A DNA stretch of 64,000 bases from Collybiopsis luxurians FD-317 M1 (lineage: Eukaryota; Basidiomycota; Agaricomycetes; Agaricales; Omphalotaceae). The position numbers and the translations under genes were made by a program. Under the pieces are notes generated by a model that worked only from the letters and a program-made list of their open reading frames with translations, was not told the origin of the DNA and searched no databases. The DNA lies in contig KN834750.1 in assembly GCA_000827265.1 (NCBI GenBank), forward strand, positions 682,001-746,000. The letters run 5' to 3'. Within the stretch, counting starts at the first letter, position 1. Each line of letters begins with the position of its first letter. Positions 41,019 through 46,700 of the stretch are shown here, in pieces.

Positions 41019-41086
41019 GGTGGTTGAGAAGAAGGAGCAGTCAATGGATTAAGCGCCGGTTATTGTGAACTTGAACCACAACCACC

Positions 41087-42420
41087 ATGGTCTTTACAGA
41101 CGACAATTATCCTTCTCCAACCTCCATTTCTCAAAAGTCAACTCTAGCTCTACTCGCTAAGCCTACTCCCTCGGACTCTTCTAAGATATCTCAGGGTATT
41201 CTCGATATCAACTCTCATCTCGGCTTTCTAGGTCGAAACCTTCTCCAAGGTCTCCCTGCGAGATATACATCCCAAGATGCTTCACAGCCCTGGCTACTTT
41301 TTTGGTCTCTCCAGTCCCTAAGTTTGCTAAAAGTCGAGCTAGACGAAGGAAATAAGAAGAAAACTGCCCAGACCATACTAGCCATGCAGAACCAGATTGA
41401 AGGTGGATTTGGCGGGGGACCGGGTCAGGCATCTCATCTGCTGCCGACTTATGCCGCTATCTGTACCCTCGCCATAGTAAGCTCCCCTTCAGGCATCAAT
41501 CGCCGCCTTCTCTACAACCTTTTCCTTTCCCTCAAAGAACCTGATGGATCCTTCCGTGTATCCTCAAACGGAGAAGTTGACGTTCGCGGCGTGTACTGTC
41601 TACTCGCAGCCGCGAAATTAACCGGTATAATGACGGAAGAACTGGTCAAAGGTACGAGAGAGTGGTTGGTTGGTTGTCAGACTTTTGAAGGTGGATTCGC
41701 ATCCGGGGCCATGGATATTGGTAACGGGAGGGCTGCCCCCTTAGGTGAAGCGCATGGAGGTTATACGTTCTGTGCCCTGGCGGCCTGGGTTCTATTGGAG
41801 TTGGAATTTCCGTCACCATCCAAGTCCCAACCCAGAATAAATCTCAAAAACCTCCGTCGTTGGCTCGTCAACATGCAAGGAGGTGAAGAGGAATTATTTG
41901 GGTTCCGTGGACGGACGAATAAACTAGTCGATGGATGCTATTCGTGGTGGGTTGGAGGATGCTTCGAGCTGCTGGATAAATTAGAAGCGGTCGAGAGGGA
42001 GAGTGAGATGATATGGAATCCTGGTGGGTTGAAAGAATATATTCTTTATGCTGCGCAGCATCAGGCAGGGGGTTTGCGGGATAAGCCACCGAAGTGAGTT
42101 CATTCCTGCGCTACTCGTTACGAGATCCTACACGACACGTCATTAGATCGCCGGATATGTACCACACGTTATACTGCCTCGCTGGATTGTCAGCAGCCCA
42201 GTACGCGTTGCAATCACATGCACCGATAACATCCTCCTCCTCGTCACCACCACAAGCCCAATCTGCACTCAACTCCACTTCCAGCCAAACAAATCCACCA
42301 TCACCACCACCACCAAGTCTTAATGCCACCGATCCCCTGTTCAACCTCACCCGAACACATGCGGAGGCGATGATGGAGTATTTTAGAAGTGGGGAGGGGT
42401 CAAAGGTTGATTTCAGGTAG
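41087..42420 (+). CDS. RAM1: Protein farnesyltransferase beta subunit RAM1
   Basis: Catalytic zinc subunit that farnesylates CaaX proteins such as Ras and mating pheromones. The alpha-alpha barrel repeats are clear: GGFGGGPGQASHLLPTYAAI, LFLSLKEPDGSFRV, DVRGVYCLLAAAKL, CQTFEGGFASGA, EAHGGYTFCALAAW, and FGFRGRTNKLVDGCYSWWVG. The zinc ligands are all visible: Asp and Cys in LVDGCYSWW and His in MYHTLYCLAGL after a single intron (about 42094-42150). A Ser/Pro-rich stretch follows, and the frame ends at 42420 with the conserved NLTRTHAEAMMEYF helix. At about 425 residues it is normal for fungal Ram1. The start at 41087 is the only reasonable ATG, 68 bp from the ABP1 start. Confidence 0.96.
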
Positions 42421-43094: not shown

Positions 43095-43250
43095 TCACCA
43101 AAATGTCCCAAACTTTATATCGTATGAGATAGAGTTATACTGACCTTATTTTGAAGAAATGGGGTTTTATAATACCGTGATAACTCCCAAAATCTGGTAT
43201 AATGGCCATATCACACCAATGTAGGTTTAAAGTTTGGGACATTTTGGTGA
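43095..43250. mobile_element. MITE-like element with 23-bp perfect terminal inverted repeats
   Basis: The 23 bases at 43095-43117 (beginning TCACCAAAATGTCCC) are repeated exactly in reverse complement at 43228-43250. The 110-bp interior is AT-rich and non-coding. The total of 156 bp fits a miniature inverted-repeat element, or a long hairpin. Flanks (GGCG on the left, TGAG on the right) show no clear target-site duplication, so the insertion may be old or the true ends may differ. It lies about 500 bp upstream of the zinc-cluster gene. Confidence 0.7.
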
Positions 43251-43748: not shown

Positions 43749-46700
43749 ATGGCGAAAATCCATCTGAAATTTTTTGGAACGATGTTAGCTTCCAATGATA
43801 CCCAGCTAAAACTTTACGATGAACCTCCTGGAGGGTTCAAAAAAAGACGGCTGCAGAACGCTTGTGATATGTGCAAGAAGGTGAAGATTCTGAATAATAT
43901 GTGTACTTGGAGGACGGAAGACTGATATGCTTCGTTCTTGCAGCGAAAGAGTAGGTATCCTTACTATTTGGGTCGATAACTTACTCAGGCCTTGTTATTT
44001 TAGTTCGATGTAAGGAGGCTTCAATCTCGATATCGTCGATGTCCAAATAATCGTATTTCCTAGGCGATAGTTCCAAGATGCCGGGATTCATCTGTTCCAA
44101 TTGCAAGGCCTTTGTGAGCTCGATTCCGAGTTACCCCTTTCAGATTTCTAAAAAGGCTTTGTCCTGTCATGCAGAACTGTGAATGCACTCATAGCTCCTC
44201 AAATGTGAAAAAGGTATTCTGTTTCTCGTCAGATCAATGTGAAAGTTACTTAGCCCAGCGTTCATTAGAAGAAAACTACTCTTGTGAATACAATCAGTCC
44301 AACAGCAGCGGGTGAACCCGCTTCCAACAATGATCCTTTCACTGGATCTACTCTCAAATTAAGTGGAGATACATTCACGTTTGCCAAACGCCAGATATCA
44401 GTTATCCTTGACACGCCTTCGTATCATGTTCCGATGGACGACCACACCTTTCTCCTCCGCCTACTCACTGAGATCGCGGCGTATGCAAGGTCGTTGGAGA
44501 CTGCTTTATCAGATTCCAGTACAAGGCCCTCGAGATCTCCTTCTCCTGTTCCGACTCATTCCTTGAATTCTAGCATAAATCCGAGCCACCCAAAGGACCC
44601 TTTGTCTCTTTACTCGGAGCCGTCGTACCAAGGACATGGAACATCGCCTGGTAGCTCTTCAGATAACCAGGACTCAATTGACCTGCATCTAGGTCTTATT
44701 GATATAGAGCTTGCAGACAACGTGAAGAAACTCGAACTCGACGCAAGTAGAGACAGTTTTTTCGGTGGCTCAAGCCAGTTGGCACTGATGAAGACTGCAA
44801 TCAAGATCAAGGAGGAGTATTCAACTAATTCGCGAAATTCAAACGATCTTGACGGTGGTGCAGCTTCGATTCCGCACGAAGGCAGAAAAGTGGATTTAGA
44901 AAAAAAGAGTCTTTCGCCTCCATCTTCAATAAATGCTTGCAACAACCCCAAAAAGCGGCCAGCATTCTGGAATGTGCATCCCGTAGGTTCAATCCCTTCC
45001 ATTCCTTTTGGACTGATTTACCAACTCTCGACACATTTTTGTTCCCAGTGGCAACATCTTGCGACGCAGACCTCCCTTCCGGAGTTGGAATTTCCTCCGC
45101 CTTCCCTCCTCGACTCGCTTGTCAATTACTATTTTATAAAGCGTAACCGAATGTTGCCCCTCCTTCATCGACCCACGTTCCAACAAGGACTGGACACTCA
45201 TTTGCACAGACGCGATCGAGCATTTGGTGAGTTGGTGCTGTCAGTTTGCGCGATTGGGGCGAGATATTCGCGTGACGAGAGAGTGTACGATGGACGTGCA
45301 AGCAAAAATTCTGAAGAACGGGAACACAGCATCGGTGAGCACCCGGGTTATTTGATTTGAATGCTCTTCGGAACTCAATTCTGCTTTTTTACCTAGGTTG
45401 GAAATATATCAACCAGATTGGTTCAATGGAAGAGTTTATGCCGCAAAGCGCACTGTATAAGGTGCAAACTATATGCGTAAGTCTACCTTTTTTTTTTTAC
45501 ACTAGCCTCAAGTTATCTCATTCTCGCGCTCAAGAACTTGATTGTATTCCTCTCAACAACCTCCATGCAGCGTCCGATCTGGGCTCTCCTCGCTATCGGT
45601 GTGCGACATGCTCAAGCTGTCGGTGCGCACCGACGGACTTTCCTTGGAACAAAACCCAGTGTCAAACAGGAACTATGGAAGAGAGCTTTTTGGGCTTTGG
45701 TTTTTCTTGATTCTTTTACGAGTGCATATTTGGGCAGGCCGAAGGCAACGGATCCTGCAGAGTGAGTTCATCGAGAATTATGACTATTTTTCGAAATGTT
45801 CAACTACTGAAATTGTCTTCTTTAGATACGACCTGGATCTGCCAATTGAATGTGACGACGAGTACTGGGAGCATCCTGATCCTGACAAAGCATTCAAGCA
45901 ACCCACCGGGCACCCATCGTCAGTTGTGCATTGGACGACTCTGTTGAAGCTGGTGGATATCCTTGCATTTGCGCAAAGGAGCCTTGTAAGGTCTCGAGTG
46001 TTCTCCTAATGGACTGACTTACTCATAAAAGATTTTCTAAGTATTCGGTGAAGAAGCCTCCAGAATTATGGAGCTCCTCAAATTCGTGGGCCTCATCCTG
46101 GGACCAAAAGGTTCTTGTAGAGTTGGACTTCGCTTTGAATATTTGGGTTGATAATATACCGGATCATCGTACGTTGAATTTGAACTTTCCTTTCTCCAGC
46201 AATACTCTAATCTTCCTTCCTGGATAGTGCGTTGGGATCCACACAGGGAAGACCCACTATTTTTTGACCAATCATGTTTATTGTACAGTACATACTATTT
46301 TGTGCAGATCCATGCTCATAGGTAAGCTGTCAATTTTTTAATTGTAGCTCTGCTTTATCGAAGACACAGGCCTTTCATTCGCCCCGGAACTATGTCTCCA
46401 TGGAGTCCACAGGAGCAGCGTCAGCGCCGCTCAGGCATTTCATACCCATCGCTAGCTGTGTGCGCTAATGCTGCCCGCTCATGTTTACATTTACTAGACC
46501 TTCATTCAAGAAGAAGCGGAGGCGCTTCCCCAATTTCTCTGAGCTCTACTTCTAGCTCTGACTCTACCTTATCTGATCCTCTACCAACCCCATTAACCAC
46601 CTTCCCAGTAGCCATATTTAACTCCGCGATCATGATACTTATGAACCTTTGGACTGGCAAGCGTCTTGGAATGACAGTGGATCCTCGGAGAGAATTGCAG

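What the first reader, a model, noticed from the sequence alone, without database searches (positions are those of the whole stretch)
43881..44063. Consecutive 7-nt and 6-nt microexons inside a Zn2Cys6 zinc cluster
CDMCKK ends at 43880. The canonical continuation RKIRCD is recovered only by joining CGAAAGA (43944-43950), TTCGAT (44004-44009) and GCGATAG from 44064. All three introns (63, 53 and 54 nt) have GT..AG ends. Skipping the 6-nt exon would keep the frame (its length is a multiple of 3) while removing two residues, Ile-Arg, between zinc ligands; skipping the 7-nt exon breaks the frame. This could act as a splice switch for DNA binding.
Basis: partly seen in the sequence, partly recalled or inferred. 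Interest (0 to 1): 0.8.

Follow-up and report, generated by a model that had tools for sequence, protein, structure and literature searches.

The report
Six-base microexon carrying a zinc ligand
In a mushroom gene-control protein, two tiny exons of 7 and 6 bases complete the DNA-binding zinc cluster; the 6-base one recurs in sister genes and is probably often missed by gene annotation in related fungi, leaving proteins that look broken in the databases.

Summary
A spliced aligner using other species' proteins picks the same exons (1 of 1000 shuffles as good). The 6-nt exon is not peculiar to this gene: 12 of 34 family members in the genome, this one included, have it at the same position and phase with coding-compatible changes; the closest paralogue, L010, has both microexons. 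One detail of the finding is wrong: skipping the 6-nt exon turns Ile-Arg-Cys into Ser (Gly in Val genes), so it removes zinc ligand Cys3, not just Ile-Arg. That product is the database entry for 60 of 222 homologues held (one of three searches was biased towards it), in five looked-up Agaricomycete orders besides Agaricales. I read these as annotation errors: 7 of 7 proteins from short intron-free contigs, probably transcripts, include the residues. Most likely this is an old, constitutively spliced microexon that annotation misses. A regulated switch, as in Trichoderma Xlr2, has no support here but is not excluded.

The parts
43782..43880 (+). Exon 1 (99 nt): N-terminus to Cys1-x2-Cys2-Lys-Lys (MLASN...NACDMCKK); an in-frame ATG further upstream is also possible as start
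43881..43943 (+). Intron 1 (63 nt, GTGAAG..GCAG), profile position 12 phase 0; seen otherwise only in paralogue L010
43944..43950 (+). 7-nt microexon CGAAAGA: Arg-Lys and the first base of Ile
   Evidence: L010 has CGAAAAG at the same place
43951..44003 (+). Intron 2 (53 nt, GTAGGT..TTAG), position 14 phase 1; present in 12 of 34 family members
44004..44009 (+). 6-nt microexon TTCGAT: rest of Ile, Arg, first base of Cys3; the conserved microexon
44010..44063 (+). Intron 3 (54 nt, GTAAGG..CTAG), position 16 phase 1; the intron by which I define the 34-member family
44064..44113 (+). Exon 4 (50 nt): rest of Cys3, linker, Cys4-x2-Cys5 (C-DSSKMPGFICSNCKAF)
44114..44174 (+). Intron 4 (61 nt, GTGAGC..GCAG), position 33 phase 0; seen otherwise only in L010
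44175..44213 (+). Exon 5 (39 nt): Cys6 segment NCECTHSSSNVKK (with one extra Cys)
44214..44268 (+). Intron 5 (55 nt, GTATTC..TTAG)
44269..45334 (+). Exon 6: linker and start of the Fungal_trans (PF04082) domain
   Evidence: 28.1 bits, cut-off 23; 3' end by the GT at 45335 only
45571..45762 (+). Part of a further exon with a middle part of PF04082; exact ends not modelled
   Evidence: 30.3 bits, profile 116-172

Best explanation
The gene encodes a Zn2Cys6-Fungal_trans transcription regulator of an Agaricomycete family. Its zinc cluster is assembled from five exons, two of them microexons. The 6-nt exon is old: it lies between two phase-1 introns and supplies Ile/Val-Arg/Lys and the first base of Cys3. 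The 7-nt exon arose when a further intron entered just upstream, in the ancestor of this gene and L010. Each short intron is most likely recognised as a unit (intron definition) and removed one after the other, so both microexons are included constitutively and a complete DNA-binding domain is made. Omission of the 6-nt exon gives an in-frame protein without Cys3, which would be expected not to fold its zinc cluster or bind DNA; omission of the 7-nt exon truncates the protein. Shown here: gene structure, coding constraint, recurrence in paralogues. Inferred: inclusion in mRNA, splicing order, the DNA-binding defect, gain of the 7-nt exon rather than loss elsewhere, and that skip-form database entries are annotation errors.
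For: Exact in-frame reconstruction; Zn_clus 31.4 bits with, 15.5 bits (below the cut-off of 21) without the 6-nt exon. A profile from other species selects these exons. 12 of 34 family members with the (16, phase 1) intron have the 6-nt exon; across the 12 the codons read [I/V][R/K]C, with the second base of I/V and the first two of Cys invariant and wobble bases varying. L010 has the same 36-7-6-50-21 layout over the domain and is sister to the window gene with support 100/99. The skip product Lys-[Ser/Gly]-Asp predicted for a phase-1 6-nt exon appears in 60 of 222 database homologues, including species of Hymenochaetales, Russulales, Gloeophyllales, Boletales and Polyporales. 7 of 7 proteins sourced only from 'lgn' contigs (longest 2,985-4,893 nt, uninterrupted frames of 893-1071 aa) include [I/V]RC.
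Against: No RNA from this gene or species was examined. Shuffle controls per gene are modest: over the 12 genes 0 to 16 of 200 shuffles reach the real score (worst L019, then L018 with 7 and L011 with 6), and the 6-nt pattern itself is chosen in 1 to 63 of 200 shuffles because the fixed flanks call for it; the weight lies in recurrence and codon pattern. L013, L019 and L020 parse with further very small upstream exons and are less certain. For other species only proteins were seen, so their 6-nt exons are inferred from the junction. That 'lgn' contigs are transcripts is inferred from the absence of introns; none is of the window gene, whether those genes have the 6-nt exon is unknown, and clustering at 90% identity could hide skip isoforms.
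Confidence: 0.8

Rival explanations
1. Regulated switch: the 6-nt exon is skipped under some conditions, giving an in-frame protein with Ser in place of Ile-Arg-Cys3 that keeps Fungal_trans and acts as a DNA-binding-dead competitor.
For: The exon is symmetric (6 nt, phase 1-1) in the 12 genes; the skip is in frame and removes a zinc ligand; a glucose-regulated 20-nt microexon in the Zn2Cys6 domain of Trichoderma Xlr2 is reported (PMC11121469, sections read); skip products are the annotated form in 60 of 222 homologues; donors upstream of the exon are slightly less canonical (G at +5 in 9 of 12, against 11 of 12 downstream and 21 of 22 in genes without the upstream intron).
Against: No RNA support here; probable transcript-derived proteins include the residues (7 of 7); the donor difference is small; symmetry may simply follow from common descent of one intron pair.
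Confidence: 0.12
2. The skip form is the genuine constitutive product: the cluster in these genes has lost Cys3 and the 6-nt matches are remnants.
For: 60 of 222 database homologues are annotated so.
Against: Coding-compatible conservation of the 6 nt in 12 genes; Pisolithus tinctorius P0186, whose cluster lists 'lgn' among its sources, has the full motif while three other Pisolithus entries (P0136, P0184, P0207) are annotated as skip.
Confidence: 0.04
3. The window gene is a decaying copy, and the exon matches are chance or non-functional.
For: First donor GTGAAG lacks G at +5; no annotated protein of this gene was listed in my searches (these limit candidates by length and list the best 120).
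Against: 363-aa open frame over exon 6, PF04082 pieces over the cut-off in two exons, six cysteines intact, and the same layout in L010.
Confidence: 0.04

Closest known systems
Xlr2 microexon of Trichoderma virens (PMC11121469; abstract and sections 2.1, 2.4, 3.5 read)
   Same: Microexon inside a GAL4-type Zn2Cys6 domain of a Fungal_trans regulator; missed by annotation, so models lacked the DNA-binding domain
   Different: 20 nt, encodes PCRRCE with two of the cysteines, in an ascomycete; regulated by glucose with RNA evidence. Here 6 nt (plus 7 nt) up to Cys3, in Agaricomycetes, no RNA data
Rhizopus delemar I1CF81 in the CeGAL study (PMC10141177; abstract and passages seen)
   Same: [quoted passage not shown] mispredicted, with five of six cysteines in the predicted sequence
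   Different: One gene of another fungus, mentioned in passing; its place in the domain could not be compared (figure not held)
Conserved small microexons of plants (PMC8831610; abstract read)
   Same: Ancient microexons of 15 nt or less, widely misannotated
   Different: Plants, many gene families, backed by RNA-seq
Microexons of fungal P450 genes (PMC1184071 passages; PMC12940212 abstract and introduction)
   Same: Exons down to 6 bp in the basidiomycete Phanerochaete and 1 nt in Fusarium
   Different: Other gene family; no DNA-binding domain

Membership tests
Zn2Cys6 binuclear cluster (PF00172) | Six cysteines (here CX2CX6CX9CX2CX6C, plus one extra Cys in the last spacer) and a score over the curated cut-off | tested here: met
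   Spliced product 31.4 bits, cut-off 21; without the 6-nt exon 15.5 bits
Fungal_trans (PF04082) regulators | PF04082 domain downstream of the cluster | tested here: met
   Exon 6 28.1 bits and a later exon 30.3 bits, cut-off 23; two other downstream pieces gave no match
Conserved coding microexon (15 nt or less) | Same length, position and phase in related genes, with coding-type substitutions | tested here: met
   6-nt exon in 12 of 34 family members; 7-nt exon in 2 of 34
Conserved coding microexon (15 nt or less) | Inclusion in mature mRNA | not testable with these tools
   No reads; indirect support from 7 intron-free 'lgn' proteins of other family members
Regulated microexon switch as in Xlr2 | Condition-dependent inclusion | not testable with these tools
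   Needs RNA
Regulated microexon switch as in Xlr2 | Microexon at the same place in the domain (PCRRCE) | tested here: not met
   Here the exons encode R-K-I-R and the first base of Cys3 (paper section 2.4)

The most novel reading that the evidence does not exclude
A 6-nt microexon carrying the third zinc ligand has been kept through Agaricomycete history as an in-frame on/off switch: regulated skipping makes Cys3-less, DNA-binding-dead isoforms of a whole family of regulators in mushroom-forming fungi, and some of the skip-form database entries are real isoforms.
Probability: 0.12. Interest if true: 0.8.

Novelty: new variant of a known kind. Interest (0 to 1): 0.55.

Why it matters
It gives a concrete, checkable cause for one class of broken DNA-binding domains among Agaricomycete Fungal_trans proteins, and names the junction (Lys-Ser/Gly-Asp in place of Lys-Ile/Val-Arg/Lys-Cys-Asp) by which such entries can be found. 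It also offers an old 6-nt exon, and a case where a second microexon lies directly beside it, for studying how very small exons are spliced in short-intron genomes.

Tried and rejected
One search tested a wrong skip product (I had removed Ile-Arg but kept Cys); one search used the true one. The first aligner read one strand only and allowed only GTA/GTG donors, so it mis-parsed L010, L019 and L020; one search allowed any GT. My first classification of database proteins was too loose and was replaced. The classes are made by patterns over the first 260-300 residues: 4 of the 10 'other' proteins (P0047, P0053, P0056, P0079) in fact keep the Cys, and 4 more (P0108, P0175, P0187, P0211) break after Lys-Lys/Arg-Lys-Ser in other ways. 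Weak splice sites as a sign of regulation: only a slight difference. I found no way to genomic DNA of other fungi: by its description genome contigs holds bacteria and archaea, no metagenome scan was allowed, and the own genome has no relatives held; I did not scan viral contigs or genome contigs. Structure prediction and fold search were not run.

Papers: no report of this conserved exon was seen in the listings of searches (open-licence PMC papers only). In PMC3990503 and PMC4014442 the word microexon occurs only as an aligner setting (passages); PMC7295025 says that most group VI zinc-cluster genes of Pleurotus ostreatus have many exons under 50 bp (passages).

Full report
What is there. 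The window belongs to Collybiopsis luxurians FD-317 M1 (Omphalotaceae), judged by two contig lengths: C11 is 1,088,088 bases, as for database protein P0003, and C7 is 1,356,040, as for P0140. At 43782 starts a gene whose exons 43782-43880, 43944-43950, 44004-44009, 44064-44113, 44175-44213 and 44269-45334 join in frame to MLASN...NACDMCKKRKIRCDSSKMPGFICSNCKAFNCECTH.... The five introns between them are GT..AG and 53-63 nt long. The product scores 31.4 bits for Zn_clus, and exon 6 and a later exon carry parts of Fungal_trans. The 3' structure was not modelled.

Chance. I wrote a spliced aligner (GT..AG introns of 40-140 nt, any exon length) with a profile of four domain sequences from other species (P0006, P0007, P0009, P0011). 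It returns the same exons with score 105.0; masking the two microexons lowers it to 80.0; 1 of 1000 dinucleotide shuffles of the interior reaches 105. For the 12 genes with the 6-nt exon, 0-16 of 200 shuffles per gene reach the real score, and the 6-nt pattern itself is picked in 1-63 of 200, because the fixed flanking exons call for it. Single genes are thus suggestive; recurrence and codon pattern carry the weight.

Recurrence in the genome. Of 41 distinct parses scoring 40 or more from 64 loci, 34 have an intron at profile position 16 phase 1, and 12 of these also one at position 14 phase 1, giving a 6-nt exon: L009 (window), L010, L011, L013, L014, L015, L018, L019, L020, L022, L053, L063. 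One of the 34, L060 (score 43), is a poor parse. The 6-nt sequences are TTCGAT, TCAAAT, TTCGTT, TAAAAT, TTAAGT, TACGTT and TCCGCT: the second base of the Ile/Val codon and the first base of Cys do not change in the 12, the wobble bases do. In the other well-parsed genes this stretch belongs to the upstream exon, for example 49 then 71 nt. The 7-nt exon is found only in the window gene and L010 (CGAAAAG there), which are sisters with support 100/99. L010's database protein P0003 appears to start inside an intron in another frame, and Pfam finds only Fungal_trans in it. In a tree of 34 rows (33 family members and L006) the 6-nt exon needs 5 changes, against 10.1 on average for shuffled labels; gain or loss is not resolved.

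What skipping would do. The 6-nt exon runs from phase 1 to phase 1. Without it the codons ATT-CGA-TGC become AGC: Ile-Arg-Cys3 is replaced by Ser, in frame. The Zn_clus score falls to 15.5 bits, under the cut-off. By alignment to GAL4 (1d66, E 0.0079) the 7-nt exon encodes the counterparts of its Lys-Lys pair and the 6-nt exon those of Leu-Lys and the start of the next Cys; that these GAL4 lysines contact the CGG bases is recalled. Skipping the 7-nt exon, or both, gives a stop soon after; retaining any one of introns 1-3 does too.

Other species. Only proteins could be examined. In the first two searches 16 of 129 proteins carry the skip product and 83 were counted as full (P0010 was there counted as full by mistake; the second query included one skip form, P0008). 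Over all three searches it is 60 of 222, with 126 full, 15 without a cluster, 11 with mainly its second half and 10 other. The third search used a skip-form query and so is enriched for it; the second and third listings showed 120 of 627 and 120 of 195 hits. Skip forms come from Hymenochaetales (Coniferiporia), Russulales (Vararia), Gloeophyllales (Heliocybe), Boletales (Serpula) and Polyporales (Trametes), and from Agaricales such as Mycena (that order recalled). Two of the 60 have Gly in place of Ser, as expected if the gene has Val (P0152, P0183). The same two-residue loss with the same substitution in so many entries fits one old 6-nt exon that gene finders jump over.

Inclusion or switch. 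Seven proteins come only from 'lgn' contigs (P0071, P0074, P0083, P0086, P0104, P0128, P0205). Their longest contigs are 2,985-4,893 nt with uninterrupted reading frames of 893-1071 residues, which suggests spliced transcripts; all seven have the full motif. I take 'lgn' to be the Logan assemblies of public reads, of which I saw only a search listing. Clustering at 90% identity may hide skip isoforms, and whether these genes have the 6-nt exon is not known. Donors are near-ordinary: G at +5 in 9 of 12 upstream and 11 of 12 downstream introns. I therefore favour constitutive inclusion.

Known relatives. Xlr2 of Trichoderma virens has a 20-nt microexon in its zinc cluster, glucose-regulated and missed by annotation (PMC11121469, abstract and sections 2.1, 2.4 and 3.5). 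CeGAL attributes over 90% of Fungal_trans-only proteins to annotation errors and mentions a two-residue exon in one Rhizopus gene (PMC10141177, abstract and passages). Basidiomycete P450 genes have exons down to 6 bp (PMC1184071, passages), Fusarium a 1-nt exon (PMC12940212, abstract and introduction), and plants ancient misannotated microexons (PMC8831610, abstract). The kind is thus known; the conserved Cys3 exon, its skip signature in databases and the 7+6 pair were not seen in my searches.

Noticed in passing
43095-43250: Short element with perfect 23-nt terminal inverted repeats, 110 nt apart, with at least ten similar places elsewhere in the genome: a MITE-like element about 530 bases upstream of the gene.
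   Followed up: partly
G000 contig C57 (L016, L017, L023, L024, L028, L031-L034, L037, L038, L057, L060): A large local cluster of paralogues of this regulator family on one contig; these 13 parse without a 6-nt exon.
   Followed up: partly
L013, L019, L020: The aligner places further very small exons (10, 4+8 and 8 nt) just upstream of the 6-nt exon, which may be independent carvings of the same stretch or mis-parses.
   Followed up: no
41075-42097: Long open frame just upstream that looks like a protein prenyltransferase beta subunit (recalled likeness, translation; not searched).
   Followed up: no
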